In this document: piece by piece, positions 34,114 to 52,984 of the stretch | Position numbering within the stretch: position 1 is the stretch's first letter | How the letters are laid out: each line of letters starts with the position of its first letter | Origin: Pelagomonas calceolata | Taxonomy: Eukaryota > Sar > Pelagophyceae > Pelagomonadales > Pelagomonadaceae | Reading direction: 5' to 3' | Assembly (NCBI GenBank): GCA_918797485.1 | Contig: CAKKNE010000002.1 | Location: 586,501 to 650,500, forward strand | Length of the DNA stretch: 64,000 bases | Made by a program: the position numbers and the translations under genes | Notes under the pieces: model-generated | What the model saw: only the letters and a program-made list of their open reading frames with translations | Databases searched by the model: none | Told to the model about the DNA's origin: nothing

Positions 34114-37100
34114 CTACGGGGCGTAGCTGATCACATCGCCGACGCGCGACGCAAAGATGGGAAACAGTAGGCCGCTTCCAGTCATCGCCGGACTGATCTT
34201 GCCCAGTAAAGCTTCTACGTCCGCTTCGAGCGTGCGCGGCGACGGCGCATGTTCGCGGGGACGTGCGGCGGCCGGCGCCGGAGCGGGCGCAGGTGCCGGG
34301 GCTGGTGCCGGGGCAGGAGCGCGTCGGGCTTCTCTTAGGGCGGCCGGTCCGCCACGCGTGCGAGCGGAAACTCCAATAGCGGAACGTCGCGCCGTCTTCA
34401 ACGCTGCCTTCGTAGCATGCGCCTTCCGTGCAGCTTCCGATCGTTTCGCCGCCGCCCCAGGCGATTCTTCCAGTCTCAGAGCGTCCGCTGCGCCCGCGAC
34501 GGCGTGCGCGAAGAGGTCCTCGACGACTCGGCGTAGCAGACCAGGGGTCTCGGACGCGTCCAGCGCGATGGCCGGGAGCTGACCGGCTTGGCGTTTCTTC
34601 ACACGGCGGAGGACGCCCTCGAGTGCTTCCAATAACTGTTGTTGATGTAACCCCCCCTCCTCCGAGAAGCCGCTGATAACAAGATTCGTCGCGGCGCCCG
34701 ATTCCCGTCGCACCAAGCACGAGCCAAAGTCCACATCAAACGCCGTGGTATGAGTCTTGAGAACCGTCGTCGCGAGCGAGAAGAAGATGCCCCGCAGAGG
34801 TAGCAGAGTAAAGGCCAGAAATGGGTTCGACATTAGAAGTAGGCCGTGGATCGTGTTGGCGCCGTCGCGCGACGAGTACTGGAGCGTCGGCGACGCACCG
34901 GCGACATCCGCGCGTCTCGGCGACGCATAGCCGTGGAGCTTGACCATGAGAGCGTTTGAACCGTGAATGATCGATATAGGGATTCTGCGCGTCGCGCCGG
35001 CGACGCCGACGCGCACCTCTATCAATGCGTTGAACGCAACACCACTTGTTGGTCGCGCGAGCAGGCGCATGCCCGCCTTTTCAAAAACGCGAGCGATGAG
35101 AGACTGCGCCAGCATGCGTTCCAGAACATCCTTGGCGCACAATGACATGGCCATCTCGTTCATGACTAGGCATGCCCAATAACAGCGCGCCTTGAGCGAG
35201 TCGTTCGGTTCGATCTTCATCACCCGCACCCTAGCTAACGTCGCAGTCGTCGCCTCGAGCACGACGACCTTGCAGTTCTCGCCGTCGACGTGGAAATCCT
35301 CGTTCTCGAGCACGTAGACCACCGGTCGATCGTCGTCCTCTCTACACATCATCGACTCCATCTCGTTGCGTTGGGGTGATGTTTTCTGGCCGTCCTCGCC
35401 AGTATAGCCGCAGTCCGTCCATTCCCTCACAATCGCCCCGTACGTCGCGTTCTGTGGCGCGAGGTTCGAGCGGTTCAGTTGCTGACGGTTGGCATACCAC
35501 GCCGCCGAGCAGAGCTGCATGACGAACGCAGTCTTGGCGCGGCGGTCGTAGCCAGGCGACGCCCGCGACACTCCTCCAGCGCGCCTGTGCGGAAATCAAA
35601 GTTCATGTGCTGAATCATCGCGTCGACCTCCACGCCGTCGACGCGGCGTCTGTTCACACTGGAGCGCACAGGAAGCCATCAATGAACTCGCGCTCCTCGT
35701 CACCCCACTCGTCGTGTTGGTGCTTCCGTTGAAAGTCTTCGTAGGACATGTCGAACATGTCCCTCATCGATTTGACGTCGTAGCCCGTGATGACTTCGAT
35801 GGGGAACTTGAGGGACAGCTCATCATCCGCATCTCGGAAGTTGTCCAGCGCTAGAGCAGCGTCCAGCTTCGTGGCGAGCCGGTCCGACGACTGCGAGAGC
35901 AAGCCCAGGTAGAGCGGGCTTTGAGTACTAATGTTGAGGTTGACGTACAACAGCTTCTCGCCGATCCCGTCGAAGCTTAAATTAGCGGCCTTGACGTCTC
36001 GGTGGTTCTCGAAGGCCTCGACGGAATCGAAGGAGACTGACTCGTCCTCAATGAACGTGCCACTGCACTCGATTTTTCCCAACTGGCCGTCGGGTTTAAC
36101 GAAGATCTTGATGTCGTAGAATGCGTACTTGACGTGGGAGGAATTGCCCAGCTCCTCGCCCTCCTCGTCACCGTCAACAAACCCGGGATGCTTGCAGTAA
36201 AACACATGGTCGCCGCTCGTACTGACGGTGAAGTGGACATGCGCGCTCTTCGTGCAACGGGCCTTCCGAAAACCGTTCCGGATGAGGTGCTCCGAACCCA
36301 CCAGTCGACCGAGCGCTTTGGTGGACATGTACGCGAGCCGTTTGCCTCGAGGATCGAGGAAAACCAACGGCATGCCGTCGGCCTGTTCTATCTCGAGACG
36401 CGCCAGGGCCAATTCCCTTCCTGACCAACCTTTGCGATCCGCCTCGGCGAGCCACTTCGATTGATTCAAAAGGTACTCCGCGCCGAGCATATTATTCAAA
36501 TCCTTTGTTTCGAGACGAAGCCGGCCATATCTTGAGTCAGAGCAGCGCGCCGCAATCCTATGTATTACAGTGTCTGTGGTGTATAGGACCCGCTTGAACT
36601 CAATCGGTTGCACGGACTCATTTGCCACGTCGGCCCAGGCGAAGTCCCAGCCCAGTAACTTGAGCGTGTTACAATGGGCGCGGCGTCCGAGCGCGTCCAC
36701 GACGTCGTTGCGCAACGTGTCCTCGTTTTGAGGGTCGCCGTGGTCGATGCTCTCATCGAGGACCCTCCAGACCCTCTTCTCATCTGCTGACGCAAGCTTC
36801 TTCAGTACCATGCCCTTCGTGCTGGCGCCGCCGAGCATGCGGCCGAATGGACGGTGGCGGCGCGCGCTCCCCGCGACGACTGCGAGCGACGTCTCCGTGA
36901 TCGGCGCCTCGCGCGTCGACGGCGTGTCTGGCGCCGCGAGCGCGTTCTTTAGAGATGCGTGGACGCGCAGAACGTCGTGGCCGTTGCGCGTCGGGTCGTC
37001 GCCAGGCGCTTTACGAGCGTCGCGGAGCGTGTCGGCCCCGCCGCACGCCATCTCCTCGACGCCGTCTAGCGACGCGCGCGAAGTGTGGTTGCCGCCTAGA

Positions 37101-46704: not shown

Positions 46705-47613
46705 CGATATTCGTACAGGCATGGATTGACTTTACTCACTCATGTTCTTCAATCGATTCATACTGGGTGAAGAGGCCAAATAACCCTTCAGGGCTGCGCG
46801 GCACTCCGTGGCGTCCAGCCTGCCCTTCCGAACGACCACGCCAGCGCCCCCTCCGCGCCCGCCGCCCGCGCCGACCCCAGCTCCCACGCATGAATCTCCT
46901 GGGCTAGTCGGCCCTGCTGCCCGCGCCGACCCCAGCTCCCACGCACGAGGAATCTCCGGGGCTAGTGATCGGGAATGGCCGCCGCCACGAACGGGCTGCC
47001 CGAGGACCCGGCCCTGCTGCGCGCGCGCCTCGTCGAGGTCGAGGCGCGCTACGCCCAGAGCCAGGTCCAGTTCCGCGAGCTCCGGACGTGGTACGACAAA
47101 TTGAAGAGGCAGCACCGCGAGCTGCTGTGGTCCGAGGCGGTGCTCGTGCGCGAGGGCCTGGAGGAGGCCATGCCCGGGCCGCCGATCGCGGACGCCGACC
47201 GCGCGAACGGCCACATCGGCGGCGGCTTCGTCCTGCGGCACCACCTCGGCGCCGGCGCGTTCGCCACGGTCTACGCGGCCGTCGACAAGGAAGGGCGCCC
47301 CTGCGCCGTGAAGCGCATCGACAAGTAACACATCAAGTCGCTCGAGTCGCTCCGGAACGTCGCGGGCGAGCTCCGGGCGCTGCGCGCCGCGGTGGGCTGC
47401 CCGAACTTGGTGTGGGTCCGCGGCGTCGTCGCGTCGGAGACGTACCTGTCCTTCGTCATGGAGCTCTTCGGGACGAGCAACCTGCAGGAGGCCGGCGCCG
47501 CGCGGCCGCAAGACGTGCGGCGCGCCGCGCCGCGCTTCGTGCGGGGCGTCGCGAACGGGCTCGCGCACCTGCACGCGCGGCACCTGCACCACCGCGACAT
47601 CAAGCCCGAGAAC

Positions 47614-47825
47614 GTGCTGCTCTGTGCGGAGATCAACTGGTGTGTCGGGTGCACCCGACAATTCTTCAGTAAGTCATTTCTCGGCGATGACGCGGCCGTC
47701 CTGGCTCGGTCGAGCGGCAAGGAATCGGCATCGCCACGCCATCGAGCAGGCATCGCGTCGATGGCGTGGAGGACAACGCGACGATTCAGCACGAACGCGC
47801 CGTAAAAAAATTGATTTCCACACAG
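47614..47825 (+). mobile_element. Introner element, 212-bp GT-AG intron (kinase copy 1, intron 1)
   Basis: The target duplicate is GTGCTGCT (5') and GTGCTGTT (3'). The element starts CTGTGCGGAGATCAA and ends TTGATTTCCACACAG, inverted repeats that match at 13 of 15 positions. The inside has CGCCACGCCATCGAGCAG and CGTCGATGGCGTGG. The paralogue reads AATGTGCTCTTCGAC without interruption, so the insertion point is exact. Phase 0. Confidence 0.92.
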
Positions 47826-47917
47826 GTGCTGTTCGACGGCACCGACGTCAAGCTCTGCGACTTCGGGCTCACCACGCCCTGCCGGCGGGACGCGAGCGGC
47901 GCGCGCCTCCGCTTCCC

Positions 47918-48009
47918 GCAGCGCGCCGTGCGGAAATCAACCAGTGAGTAGTTACGGCGACGACGTCGCGTCGATGGCGTGGGGCGTCCGAAATCTGATT
48001 TTCACACAG
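47918..48009 (+). mobile_element. Introner element, 92-bp GC-AG intron (kinase copy 1, intron 2)
   Basis: It has a perfect 8-bp target duplicate, GCAGCGCG, on both sides. The element runs from CCGTGCGGAAATCAA to CTGATTTTCACACAG. The paralogue reads CCGCAGCGCGTCACC uninterrupted. Exact removal needs a GC 5' splice site supplied by the duplicate. Phase 2. The perfect duplicate suggests it is among the youngest here. Confidence 0.92.
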
Positions 48010-48659
48010 GCAGCGCGTGACCGGGAGCCTGGGCTTCTTCGCGCCGGAGATGCTCCATCCCGGGGGCTACGACGGCCCGCCGGCCGACGTCTGGAGCGCG
48101 GGCGTGCTGGCCCTCGAGGTGCTGATCGGCACGCCGGACTTCGACGCCCTGTGGTTCGTGGCCTACAATACGGAGTACAAGCGGGGCACCTTGATGCAGG
48201 ACCGCCGCGCCGACGACGGCGCGGACGTGCACGCCCATTTTTGCGGCGTCCTGGCGCCGATCGTCGACGCCCTCGCCGACGGCGCGACGGCGCTGGGCGC
48301 GCTCGTGGCGCGCCACGCCGCCAACGCCGAAGTCGCCGGCGCGTGCCGCGCCATGCTGCGCCTCGACCCGTCCGCGCGCCCGACAGCGGCCGCGGTCCGC
48401 GACGGCCTCACGACCGAGACGGTCGTGACCGAGCTCTGACCGGGCCTCAATTCCATGTAGAAACAACATGCACATGTCACCGGATCCCATATCTTCGAAT
48501 CATCGTCAATCAAATCCTACTACGTGTATAGAATCGACCCCCATCGACCGACCCCCATACAATTAGACGCGGTCTCGTGCGGACCCTTGGTTCTCGCTGA
48601 CCCCGATGTCCATAATCGTAACTTGAATCTAAACACCCGGTCCACCACCATAACCGTCG

Positions 48660-48739
48660 GAGCCCCCTCCAGCCCCCCCGAGACGTAGGGAGAGGTCGTT
48701 TGAGTGCGGGGAGGAATGTCTCGGTCCAATTTGCGCGAG
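48660..48739 (+). repeat. 80-bp dispersed repeat, copy 1
   Basis: It runs from GAGCCCCCTCCAGCC to CCAATTTGCGCGAG and matches 49401-49480 with only a few differences. It lacks obvious inverted ends. Confidence 0.8.
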
Positions 48740-49400
48740 TCGTTGAAGCGTCAAAGTACGGGAGTGATCGGACGTGAGATGATGAGCAGCTAAATGGTTG
48801 AGCTCTGGCGCGGCCGGAGGAGGGTGCACCGGGCAGTACGCGCGTGCGCGCGTTGCTCTGACTGCCGCCTGCCGTGGGGCAGCCAACGCGGCGGGGAAAA
48901 GGCAGCAGCTTGCCTCCCACGGGAGGTGAGACAAGACAAGTCCGCCGGCCGCTGGGGTAGGGACGGCTGTTCATGCGCCGCAAGCTGGCTCGAGGCCAAT
49001 GACGACGGGTGCTTTTCCGGCGGCGCGAGAGGCGGAGCCTCAGCGCAGTGGAGAGCGACGGCTCCGTCGCCCGCGGGACGTCGGAGGCGCGCATGCGTGA
49101 ACGCCACTCATACCGTTGGTGCGGTGGCGCGACGCGGCCGACGCGAAGATGAATCCTTCGGGACGATGTTCACAGCATGGGTAGCCATTTTCTTTGCGTT
49201 GATTCCCCCGTGTGCTCGCGTCGGCAGCGGCGACCGCGCGTCGGCGAAATTCGGCGCCACCGATGCCGGGGCCAAGGACCAGACCCGTTTGGGTGTGTAG
49301 GCAGTTTTTACTAAGGCCTAGTTTGTGTCTCGTCGTCAGGCTCTTTGTTTGGCTGTTGCGGGGTCGGTGCGGCGCGCCTCGGAGCCCAAGCCGCGCCTTC

Positions 49401-49480
49401 GAGCCCCCTCCAGCCCCCCAGAGACGTAGGGAGAGGTCGTTTAAGTGCAGGGAGGAATGTCTCGGTCCAATTTGCGCGAG
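49401..49480 (+). repeat. 80-bp dispersed repeat, copy 2
   Basis: This is the partner of 48660-48739, in direct orientation, 741 bp away. Both lie between the duplicated kinases. Confidence 0.8.
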
Positions 49481-49765
49481 GTGTAGATTCAAGCGCGAGT
49501 ATCAGCGAGTTTGCTTGTTTTAGGGTCATGTGGGCAAGACGGGGGAATTGGTTCAGCAGACCATCTCAATACCAGTTTTGAAGCCCACGTTTTTTTTTGC
49601 TCGTGTTCTTCAATCAATTCATACTGCGTGAAGAGCGAAGAGCCGCCCTGCCGCGCTGCGCGGCACGCCGTGGACTCCCGACCACGCCAGCGCCCACTCC
49701 GCGCCCGCCGCCCGCGCCGACCCCAGCTCCCACGCACGAGGAATCTCCGGGGCTAGTGATCGGGA

Positions 49766-51274
49766 ATGGCCGCCGCCACGAACGGGCTGCCCGAGGACCC
49801 GGCCCTGCTGCGCGCGCGCCTCGCCGAGGTCGAGGCGCGCTACGCCCAGAGCCAGGTCCAGTTCCGCGAGCTCCGCACCTGGTACGACAAGCTGAAGAGA
49901 CACCACCGCGAGCTGCTGTGGTCCGAGGCGGTGCTCGCGCGCGAGGGCCTGGAGGAGGCCATGCCCGGGCCGCCGATCGCGGACGCCGACCGCGCGAACG
50001 GCCACATCGGCGGCGGCTTCGTCTCGAGCCGCGTGGAAATCAACCAATTTCTCGGCGACGACGCGGCCGTCCTGGCTCGGTCGAGCGGTGGGGACCCCAC
50101 ATCGCCACCCCGTCGAGCAGGCGTCGCGCCAATGGCGTGGAGGACAGGCAGCGCACGATTCAAGAACGCGCCGTAAATTTTGATTTCCACACAGGTCCTG
50201 CGGCACCACCTCGGCGCCGGCGCGTTCGCCACGGTCTACGCGGCCATCGACAAGGAAGGGCGCCCCTGCGCCGTGAAGCGCATCAACAAGTACCACATCA
50301 AGTCGCTCGAGTCGCTCCGGAACGTCGCGGGCGAGCTCCGGGCGCTGCGCGCCGCGGTGGGCTGCCCGAACTTGGTGTGGGTCCGCGGCGTCGTCGCGTC
50401 GGAGACGTACCTGTCCTTCGTCATGGAGCTCTTCGGGACGAGCAACCTGCAGGAGGCCGGCGCCGCGCGGCCGCAAGACGTGCGGCGCGCCGCGCCGCGC
50501 ATCGTGCGGGGCGTCGCGAACGGGCTCGCGCACCTGCACGCGCGGGACATGCACCACCGCGACATCAAGCCCGAGAATGTGCTCTTCGACGGGACCGACG
50601 TTAAATTGTGCGACTTCGGGCTCACGAGGCCGTGCCGGCGGGACGCGAGCGGCGCGCGCCTCTTCTTCCCGCAGCGCGTCACCGGGAGCCTGGGCTTCTT
50701 CGCGCCGGAAATGCTCCATCCTGAGGGCTACGACGGCCCGCCGGCCGACGTCTGGAGCGCGGGCGTGCTGGCCCTCGAGGTGCTGATCATCGCATAAATC
50801 AAATTGTCGCGGCGCGTCTCCGCCACCGCTGAATCGCGGCCGCCACGCCATCGACGCGACGTCAGCACGACGGCGTGGCGGTGTGGTCTCTCACCGACCG
50901 ATTCGGCCAGCACGGCCGCGCGTTCGCCGAGAGACTGATTGATTTGCGCACAGGTCCTCATCGGCACGTCGGACTTTGACGCCCTGTGGTTCGTGGCCTA
51001 CAATACGGAGTACAAGCGGGGCACCTTGATGCAGGACCGCCGCGCCGACGACGGCGCGGACGCGCACGCCCATTTTTGCGGCGTCCTGGCGCCGATCGTC
51101 GACGCCCTCGCCGACGGCGCGACGGCGCTGGGCGCGCTCGTGGCGCGCCACGCCGCCAACGCCGAAGTCGCCGGCGCGTGCCGCGCCATGCTGCGCCTCG
51201 ACCCGTCCGCGCGCCCGACGGCGGCCGCGGTCCGCGACGGCCTCACGACCGAGACGGTCGTGACCGAGCTCTGA
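49766..51274 (+). CDS. Serine/threonine protein kinase copy 2 (intact, spliced)
   Basis: Exons 49766-50020, 50195-50779 and 50954-51274 encode 386 aa. Residues ~1-80 form a coiled-coil N-terminus (ARLAEVEARYAQSQVQFRELRTWYDKL). The kinase domain spans ~85-375: Gly loop LGAGAFATVY, ATP Lys in CAVKR, catalytic HHRDIKPENVLF, Mg site CDFGLT, and activation segment ending TGSLGFFAPEML. DVWSAGVLALEVLIGT is subdomain IX, and the ARHAANAEVAGACRAMLRLDPSARPT helix follows. All catalytic residues are present, so it should be active. Group CAMK/AGC-like; no orthologue named. It is the intact partner of the stop-carrying copy upstream. Confidence 0.88.
50021..50194 (+). mobile_element. Introner element, 174-bp GT-AG intron (kinase copy 2, intron 1)
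   Basis: It starts GTCTCGAG, then CCGCGTGGAAATCAA, and ends TTTGATTTCCACACAG before GTCCTGCG. Copy 1 reads GGCTTCGTCCTGCGG without a break, so the boundaries are certain. The first three bases of the duplicate are kept; the rest of the intronic copy has drifted. Internal CGCCACCCCGTCGAGCAG and CCAATGGCGTGG motifs are present. Phase 0. Confidence 0.9.
50780..50953 (+). mobile_element. Introner element, 174-bp GT-AG intron (kinase copy 2, intron 2)
   Basis: The target duplicate is GTGCTGAT (5') and GTCCTCAT (3'). The element ends are CATCGCATAAATCAA and TTGATTTGCGCACAG. Copy 1 reads CTCGAGGTGCTGATCGGCACG without a break. CGCCACGCCATCGACGCG and CGACGGCGTGGCGG lie inside. Phase 0. Confidence 0.9.
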
Positions 51275-51405
51275 CCGGGCCTGAATTTCGTACAACATGC
51301 ACATGTCACCAGATCCCGTATCCTCATCAATCATCCTCTTGACACTGGCAGAATCGACCCCTGCCGACCCCCATATCATACGAAGTATTAGTAATCGTAA
51401 TCTCT

Positions 51406-51576: not shown

Positions 51577-52984
51577 CTAGGCGGCGGCCGGGACGGCGTC
51601 GAAGGAGGCCGGCCGCGTCGGCGGCTCGGCGAGGCCCTCGGGCGCGTGGATAGGTGATGGCGACGTCGGCGAGTCGGGCTCGCGCGGCCGGGAGAGGTCG
51701 ACGCTCGTCTGGACGCGGAGGCCGCGCGCCGCGGCGCCGAGTTTGTCGGATTCCGTGGAATCGATGCGCGAGAGCGTGACGCGCTTGCGGCGGCCGCAGG
51801 GGCGGCGGTGAGGCATGGGCGTGTCGGAGAAGGAGCGCCGCGCGGAGTCGTAGGTGAGCCGCAGCAACTTCCGCGCGCCGCCCTCCGCGTTCGGCAGGAC
51901 GAGGTCGAAGTACGCGGCCTCGCAGAGCTGGTCCACCGTCGCGCGCCGCGCCGGCTCCAAATCCAAGAGCTGCTCGACCAACATACGTAGCGCGGGCGAC
52001 GGCGCGCACTGCGTCGAGCCGAGCTTGACCTGGAGCACGGTCTCCGAAACGGCGTCGCGAAACGCCTCGTCGTCGTGCAAGTGGTCGTAGGGCGGGCACC
52101 ACAGGTTCGTGAAGACCTCGTGGCCCAAGAGCATCTCGAGCATGACGCAGCCCAGCGACCAGACGTCCGCGCGCTTGCCGCAGTACGACTTCGCGAGGAG
52201 TAGCTCGGGCGCGAAGAAGCCCGGCGAGCCCACGAAGTCCGTGAGATTCTCTCCCGAACTGACGTCCGCACAGAGCCCGAAGTCGCAGAGCTTGACGACG
52301 CCGCGCTTCCTCGGGTCGACGTTCTGCTCGTGGGCCGCCCAGGTGTCGGGCGTGCCCATGACCAGGACGTTTTCTGGTTTCAAATCTCTATGAGCAATAC
52401 CCTGCGCGTGGCAGTGGCGCAGGCCCAGCGCCGCAATCCTCATGACGCTCCGCACCACGTCTTCCGTGCAGCCGTCCTTGTAGTCGTCTAAGAACGCGTA
52501 CAAATCTCGGTCGCCCCGCTCCAACACCAAGTACACATGCTGCGGGCTCTGGATGACGTCGTACAGTCGCACGACCGCCGCGTGCGAGAAGCGCTTCAGA
52601 GCCCTAACCTCGGTGTCGACGCGCTTGATGTTGCGCTTCGCCTTGTGTAAGGACGCGTGGCGCTGGACCCGTTCCTTCCGGATGGCCTTGCAGGCGAACT
52701 TTTTGGAGCGGTCCTCCCTCTCGACGCACTCGAACACCTGCGCGAACTCGCCCTCGCCTGTGCGAAGAAGGGTGAGATAGTTCTAATGATGTGAACGTAC
52801 CGAGCTTGCGCGTGAGCTCGAAGCGGCCCAAGTTCATACCTCTGCGGACCTGCTCGCCGCTCAATTTGGGGTCGATGGGCGGCAGGTGCTTTTGCTGCTG
52901 CCAGGTGCTCAGGAGCGTCGAGGCCGCGCCGTCGGGCGCGGGCTTCGTCGCCCCGGCGGGCCGCGGCCGGCGGAAGGGCGCCAT
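51577..52984 (-). CDS. Serine/threonine protein kinase with a conventional intron
   Basis: Exons 52984-52801 and 52757-51577 encode 454 aa. Exon 1 ends inside the Gly loop; joining gives GRFELTRKLGEGEFAQVFECVERE, which exon 2 alone lacks. Further motifs are FACKAIRKERV (ATP Lys), IAHRDLKPENVLV, KLCDFGLCADV, VGSPGFFAPELLL, and DVWSLGCVMLEMLLG. The pattern is CAMK-like. The C-terminal ~110 residues are a Ser/Pro/Arg-rich tail (SRPREPDSPTSPSP) that may be regulatory. It shares the FFAPE signature with the tandem kinases next door but is clearly a separate gene. Confidence 0.87.
52758..52800 (-). other. Conventional 43-nt spliceosomal intron
   Basis: On the minus strand it runs GTACGTTCACATC...CTTCTTCGCACAG. 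It has a consensus-like GTACGT donor, a possible branch site (AGAACTATC) and a short pyrimidine tract. It has no target duplicate or inverted ends, so it is not of introner type. Phase 1. Confidence 0.85.

What the first reader, a model, noticed from the sequence alone, without database searches (positions are those of the whole stretch)
46975..51274. Reciprocal intron presence/absence in tandem kinase paralogues: four introners caught in the act
Two nearly identical kinase genes lie in tandem. Copy 1 has introns at 47614-47825 and 47918-48009; copy 2 has them at 50021-50194 and 50780-50953. No position is shared, and each site is uninterrupted in the other copy, so all four insertions followed the duplication or were lost reciprocally. 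All four share inverted ends (about CTGTGYGGAAATCAA and its complement), internal GCCATCGA/TCGATGGCG motifs and 8-bp target duplicates. They bring their own CACACAG acceptor and borrow the donor from the duplicated exon. Spliced lengths of the two copies are identical (387 codons). This matches the introner mechanism known from Micromonas and Aureococcus, but the allelic-style pair gives the boundaries directly.
Basis: partly seen in the sequence, partly recalled or inferred. Interest (0 to 1): 0.93.

Follow-up and report, generated by a model that had tools for sequence, protein, structure and literature searches.

The report
Mobile introns in paired kinase genes
Two side-by-side copies of a kinase gene in a tiny ocean alga are interrupted at different places by small jumping DNA pieces that look like introns, and relatives from the sea carry the same pieces in other combinations, so the insertions seem to circulate and need not have arisen after the gene was copied.

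Summary
The genome fits Pelagomonas calceolata RCC100 (32.4 Mb, 8 contigs; name inferred). Corrections: copy 1 has a premature TAA at codon 118; intron C (47918-48009) is GC-AG; intron D lies in reverse; target duplicates match 8/8 (C), 7/8 (B), 6/8 (D), 5/8 (A). The family is genome-wide: 1663 exact terminal repeats, 677 with GT at -8 against 18 with TG. The introner reading stands, from DNA only; no splicing was seen. The dating claim does not. Metagenome proteins reading into these introns show A, C and D at the same places in relatives whose exons are 87-93% identical to copy 2, where the two copies are 95-98% identical to each other, and in other combinations (A without D; D without A; C without B; B without C, inferred). 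The reciprocal pattern is better explained by older, segregating introners sorted or mixed by recombination than by four gains after duplication; assembly chimeras are the main doubt. No driving transposase was found.

The parts
46975..48439 (+). kinase copy 1 (exons 46975-47613, 47826-47917, 48010-48439); premature TAA at 47326-47328
   Evidence: translation; 13 amino-acid differences from copy 2 plus the stop
47614..47825 (+). intron B (PEN|V): left target duplicate 47614-47621 + full-length element 47622-47825 (204 bp)
   Evidence: GT-AG; duplicates GTGCTGCT/GTGCTGTT
47918..48009 (+). intron C (FP|QR): duplicate 47918-47925 + 84-bp deletion derivative 47926-48009; GC-AG
   Evidence: duplicates GCAGCGCG/GCAGCGCG, identical to the empty site in copy 2
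49766..51274 (+). kinase copy 2 (exons 49766-50020, 50195-50779, 50954-51274), open reading frame intact after removal of the introns; Pkinase PF00069
50021..50194 (+). intron A (GGGF|V): left duplicate 50021-50028 (decayed, 3/8 mismatches) + 166-bp element 50029-50194
50780..50953 (+). intron D (ALE|VLI): left duplicate 50780-50787 (GTGCTGAT, identical to the empty site in copy 1) + 166-bp element 50788-50953 in reverse orientation
46739..48493 (+). left unit of the tandem duplication, as far as alignable
   Evidence: blastn blocks: match 49600-51322; flank identities
49600..51322 (+). right unit of the tandem duplication, as far as alignable
   Evidence: blastn blocks
51577..52737 (-). third, distant kinase (41% identity over query residues 89-297), one open frame, so no intron at the aligned B, C and D sites; outgroup

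Best explanation
The four introns are introners: 84-204 bp, non-autonomous, inverted-repeat DNA elements of a family spread through the Pelagomonas genome. An element inserts with an 8-bp target duplication whose first two bases are usually GT (sometimes GC). The left duplicate then serves as 5' splice site, and the element's end (..CACAG) as 3' splice site; because both ends carry the same inverted repeat, either orientation supplies an AG. Removing duplicate plus element restores the exon exactly. [Anatomy shown; splicing inferred.] The reciprocal arrangement is most likely not four gains after this duplication: the same insertions exist in other alleles and in more distant relatives, in several combinations, and the two copies are probably two diverged haplotypes or older paralogues whose coding parts were partly evened out by gene conversion. 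[Inferred.]
For: Family: 1390+1363 ends at up to 1 mismatch against 3+0 for the reversed-pattern control. 1663 exact ends: 677 with GT at -8, 688 with AC at -2 (the mirror image), 360 with GC at -8, 18 with TG at -8. In 264 kb (window plus 20 sampled regions) 7 complete elements with duplicates were found, 0 at each of four shifted offsets. Removing the element gives a longer frame than leaving it for 7 of 9 elements outside the window, e.g. 645 against 123 aa and 460 against 262 and 212 aa in L031. Either orientation: D. Other alleles, from ORFs that run into or out of the elements (site calls by eye from 22, 33, 43; cluster sizes in 21, 28, 29): P0010 (86 members) A+ B- C- D-; P0011 (56) A- B- C- D+; P0013 (13) A- B- C+; P0016 (72) A- B+; P0121 (323) B+ (inferred from its start at the acceptor) C- D-; P0022, P0137, P0138, P0141 A+; P0124 (66) and P0125 (53) D+. 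Exon-only identity to copy 2: P0022 90.6, P0137 88.2, P0138 87.1, P0141 88.2, P0013 89.3, P0011 89.3, P0125 92.5%; copies 1 and 2 over the same stretches 95.5-98.1%. P0137 has 50/50 identical residues in the translated part of A but 72/80 in the exon before it, as expected if A moved by recombination. Copy 1's T230 and R242, next to C, are shared with the C+ protein P0013 (and with the uninterrupted P0009). 18 of 36 differences between the copies fall in 190 of 1161 nt around B and C (post hoc binomial P 3e-6), while nt 354-560 have none.
Against: No RNA reads were available, so splicing is not shown. For the two L003 elements the frame is longer with the elements than without (495 against 378 aa). 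The relatives are protein predictions from metagenome assemblies; chimeric contigs could fake combinations (P0008, P0020 and P0150 look mosaic or chimeric). B+ in P0121/P0122 rests on the start position only; C+ outside this strain on one cluster (13 members). Closeness of differences to introns is significant against random placement (P 5e-5) but not against rotation that keeps their clustering (P 0.09). The immediate upstream flank is as similar as the coding part (62 of 64), so the flanks do not clearly show an older duplication (downstream 44 of 54 columns with 6 gaps). P0001-P0009 are uninterrupted, but may be spliced transcripts and not intron-free DNA.
Confidence: 0.7

Rival explanations
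1. One reading: one intron-free gene duplicated, then each copy independently gained two introners.
For: Empty sites in the other copy look like single, unduplicated targets; C has an exact target duplicate; copies are 96% identical in protein and the near upstream flank 62 of 64; the neighbouring distant kinase has no introns at the aligned B, C and D sites.
Against: A, C and D occur at the same places in relatives 87-93% identical in exons, and B in several alleles; decayed duplicates of A (3/8) and D (2/8).
Confidence: 0.14
2. Reciprocal loss: the ancestor had all four introns and each copy lost a different pair, by recombination with cDNA or with an intron-less copy.
For: Exact losses are possible by such recombination; sites A, B, C and D are each both occupied and empty among metagenome proteins.
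Against: No tabulated protein shows more than two introns, and none shows A with B; this is weak, because an ORF usually ends inside the first intron it meets. P0012, which reads through A, is B-; P0010, which starts from A, is B- C- D-.
Confidence: 0.1
3. Unspliced miniature transposons in decaying genes: not introns at all, copy 1 being a pseudogene already.
For: Copy 1 has a premature stop; the four donors lack an extended consensus; stronger donor-like motifs inside the elements (GTAAGT at offset 55 in B, GTGAGT at offset 26 in C) would shift the frame; L003 frames are longer unspliced.
Against: Exact frame restoration at four of four sites; 41% of all exact ends carry GT at -8 against 1% TG; other genes are interrupted (L031; RpiB-like P0164); the genome paper reports an intron-length peak near 210 bp (PMC9481584).
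Confidence: 0.06

Closest known systems
Introner elements of Aureococcus anophagefferens and Micromonas pusilla (Huff et al. 2016, not held, recalled; discussed in Gozashti et al. 2022, PMC9860276, passages seen)
   Same: Short inverted-repeat elements with target duplicates, one splice site co-opted from the duplicate, the other carried; many copies in genes
   Different: Different host genus; homology of the repeats with those of Aureococcus was not tested. The legend of Gozashti Fig. 2F describes an Aureococcus family that adds 12 bp to the transcript; here removal restores the exon exactly
Introners of Pelagomonas calceolata as hinted in PMC9481584 (passages and section 6 seen)
   Same: Same genome by size and contig number; [quoted passage not shown]
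   Different: The parts seen give no element anatomy, target sites or population variation; its Supplementary Note 3 was not readable here
Presence/absence polymorphism of introners in Micromonas from metagenomes (PMC3879977, passages seen)
   Same: Metagenome sequences reveal insertions absent from reference strains (511 novel ones there); GC donors common in one class
   Different: Here several sites in one gene, shared across diverged backgrounds and in different combinations, plus a tandem pair

Membership tests
Introner | many near-identical copies across the genome | tested here: met
   1390+1363 ends at up to 1 mismatch, control 3+0; 1663 exact
Introner | copies lie inside genes and leave the frame intact when removed | tested here: met
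   four of four in the window; outside it 7 of 9 elements give a longer frame when removed, the two in L003 do not; not tested genome-wide
Introner | inverted terminal repeats and target duplication (DNA-type introner) | tested here: met
   weak at D left end (6 of 15 mismatches) and in A duplicate (3/8)
Introner | donor co-opted from duplicate, acceptor carried by element | tested here: met
   sequence of four introns; GT at -8 in 677 of 1663 ends, TG in 18
Introner | spliced from mRNA | not testable with these tools
   no RNA reads; P0001-P0009 uninterrupted ORFs may be transcripts or intron-free DNA
hAT transposon (non-autonomous) | 8-bp target duplication | tested here: met
   other superfamilies share this length (recalled)
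hAT transposon (non-autonomous) | hAT transposase flanked by the same inverted repeats in the genome | tested here: not met
   one PF05699 match, C4:4499982-4500185; in the 7.1 kb examined (L038+L039) no end at up to 3 mismatches, and the 4 pairs of 4-mismatch ends have no matching duplicates (5 or 6 of 8 differ). Not filed as hAT

The most novel reading that the evidence does not exclude
A single transposition makes an introner, and homologous recombination or gene conversion then carries it, with a short exon flank, into other alleles, paralogues and diverged lineages, so that one gene and its close relatives hold a shuffled set of at least six to seven intron positions in nature; introns here spread in two steps, transposition and recombination.
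Probability: 0.4. Interest if true: 0.72.

Novelty: new member of a known kind. Interest (0 to 1): 0.55.

Why it matters
Intron gain is rarely seen with its empty site and its polymorphism together. This 1.16-kb reading frame shows, across metagenome relatives, at least six introner sites, with both occupied and uninterrupted forms at each of the four sites found in the window, and a tandem pair in a cultured reference strain judged homozygous by its authors (PMC9481584). That makes it a good place to measure how new introns are gained, lost, spliced and moved between alleles. It also warns that presence/absence between close duplicates does not date an insertion.

Tried and rejected
Driver transposase: hAT PF05699 one match without the repeats; MULE PF10551 none, with three positive controls; Merlin-type PF12762 none, with one positive control; KDZ PF18758 and P-type PF21787 none, but their controls were silent too, so nothing follows. 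Which superfamily each profile stands for is recalled. The driver may be absent from this strain, or missed.

Giant-virus carriage: three exact patterns in viral contigs (full-length pair, interior, short pair), 0 matches each; inexact relatives would be missed.

Clustering of exon differences at introns as insertion-associated mutation: not kept, because the rotation test gives P 0.09 (0.21 without differences inside the duplicates).

Diverged non-coding flanks as proof of an older duplication: dropped on checking. One upstream block is 81% and another 92%, but the second overlaps a local repeat and the nearest 64 columns have 62 matches. The odds of the best explanation were lowered slightly for this (0.72 to 0.70).

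B' (P0018), G in P0146 and a possible site in P0149: repeat remnants are seen, but what follows does not return to the kinase or is too short; listed as uncertain.

Papers: PMC9481584 passages and section 6; PMC9860276, PMC3879977 and PMC10087736 passages; Huff 2016 (PMC5684705) not held, recalled only. A search for introner with Pelagomonas gave one paper, PMC9481584; of searches I saw listings, and no title or abstract start described this family. Most subscription papers and preprints are outside the library.
Full report
What genome. The window is C2:586501-650500 of an assembly of 32,445,274 bases in 8 contigs. Pelagomonas calceolata RCC100 is described as six nuclear contigs totalling 32.4 Mb plus a plastid and a mitochondrial contig, 63.6% GC (PMC9481584, section 6); the window is 65.5% GC.

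Observation. Both kinase copies, the four intron coordinates and the equal length after removal (1161 nt) hold. The copies differ at 36 of 1161 sites (NG86 dN 0.018, dS 0.070, the stop codon left out). The product is a protein kinase (PF00069, E 9.6e-43). Among the 108 scored matches in the own genome, those outside the two copies are at most 41% identical. The metagenome protein P0016, which carries intron B, has tyrosine there, so the stop is not general for B-bearing genes; it may be a strain mutation or a sequencing error.

Anatomy. Label the sites A (50021-50194), B (47614-47825), C (47918-48009) and D (50780-50953). Each intron is an 8-bp left target copy plus the element: 166, 204, 84 and 166 bp. 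B is full length beside other copies of the genome (203-204 bp); A and C are shorter derivatives and D is reversed. Left/right target copies: A GTCTCGAG/GTCCTGCG, B GTGCTGCT/GTGCTGTT, C GCAGCGCG/GCAGCGCG, D GTGCTGAT/GTCCTCAT. In the other copy the empty site is GTCCTGCG, GTGCTCTT, GCAGCGCG and GTGCTGAT. So the empty sites look like single, unduplicated targets. C starts with GC, the others with GT.

Genome-wide. Exact ends CTGTGYGGAAATCAA number 837+826. GT stands at -8 in 333+344 of them, AC at -2 in 349+339, GC at -8 in 188+172, and the composition-matched control TG at -8 in 5+13. As each element has two ends and only one can be the donor side, about 80% of elements have a GT-starting duplicate in one orientation (my arithmetic). 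Whether this is target preference or survival of spliceable copies is open. In 264 kb (window and L018-L037) the relaxed finder gave 7 complete elements and none at four offset controls; it missed A and D, whose duplicates have decayed. Of 9 elements examined in loci outside the window, removal gave a longer spanning frame for 7 and a shorter one for the two in L003 (378 against 495 aa); the clearest gains are in L031 (645 against 123; 460 against 262 and 212), the others are small.

Population variation. Three protein searches were made. One search listed 120 of 977 hits, of which I fetched 24; one search gave 14, one search gave 34 (33 new), all fetched. I tabulated 61 (P0001-P0022, P0121-P0159; P0159 gave no alignment). 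Left out of the table: P0023 and P0024 (32-33%), and P0160-P0167, which match by an introner tail in other genes. Site calls were made by eye. A present: P0010, P0012, P0022, P0135-P0141, P0144, P0147, P0158 (13). B present: P0014-P0016, and by start position P0121, P0122. C present: P0013. D present: P0011, P0124-P0126, P0131, P0132, P0134 (7). Further sites: E (P0017, 265 members, a 73% relative), F (P0131, P0132, about 70% relatives), G (P0142; P0146 uncertain), B' (P0018, uncertain). No interruption anywhere: P0001-P0009; these could be spliced transcripts or intron-free DNA. The other tabulated proteins end or begin in sequence I could not assign to an introner. Because an ORF usually stops inside the first intron it meets, most proteins report on only part of the gene.

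What follows. Counting exon residues only, identity to copy 2 is 87.1-90.6% for the A+ proteins P0022, P0137, P0138 and P0141, 89.3% for the C+ protein P0013, and 89.3 and 92.5% for the D+ proteins P0011 and P0125; copies 1 and 2 are 95.5-98.1% identical over the same stretches. Either these insertions predate the split of the backgrounds, or they moved between them. The translated part of A in P0137 equals that of copy 2 in 50 of 50 residues while the 80 exon residues before it match in 72; P0136 50/50 and 75/80, P0138 48/50 and 71/80, P0135 47/50 and 78/80, P0139 36/50 and 76/80. An intron less diverged than its exon points to transfer by recombination, or to chimeric contigs. P0141 (8 members) and P0147 have their own deletions inside A, which speaks against all of these being chimeras.

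The two copies in this strain. Half of the differences (18 of 36) lie in nt 600-790 of the coding sequence, around B and C, and none in nt 354-560. This unevenness suits gene conversion between older copies, or a duplication that joined two diverged haplotypes; the data cannot separate these. Against over-reading: the test of closeness to introns fails once clustering is kept (P 0.09), and the nearest upstream flank is 62 of 64 identical, so the flanks give no clear sign of greater age.

Prior work. Introners as DNA elements with co-opted splice sites are established (PMC9860276, passages), metagenomic presence/absence variation was shown in Micromonas (PMC3879977, passages), and an introner-like length peak in Pelagomonas was noted (PMC9481584). 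The kind is therefore known. New here, as far as the listings of searches show, are the anatomy of the Pelagomonas family, the GT statistics, and the mixed, cross-background occupancy of several sites in one gene.

Noticed in passing
window 48660-48739 and 49401-49480: An 80-bp repeat, 96% identical, occurs twice in the spacer between the two kinase copies.
   Followed up: no
window 35585-35599: An exact terminal repeat of the family without a detected partner and duplicate.
   Followed up: no
L031 7356-7558 and 7799-7993: Another gene (minus strand, methyltransferase-like by eye) holds two elements; removing both gives a 460-aa frame.
   Followed up: partly
P0164 (metagenome protein, PF02502; RpiB-like, recalled): A sugar-phosphate-isomerase-type protein runs into the introner sequence near its end: an independent example in another gene.
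   Followed up: no
L038/L039 (C4:4499982-4500185): A single hAT-dimer-type open frame of over 600 aa, without this family's repeats nearby.
   Followed up: partly
P0008, P0136, P0147: N-terminal segments of one background joined to the rest of another near RELLWS: mosaic genes or chimeric contigs.
   Followed up: no
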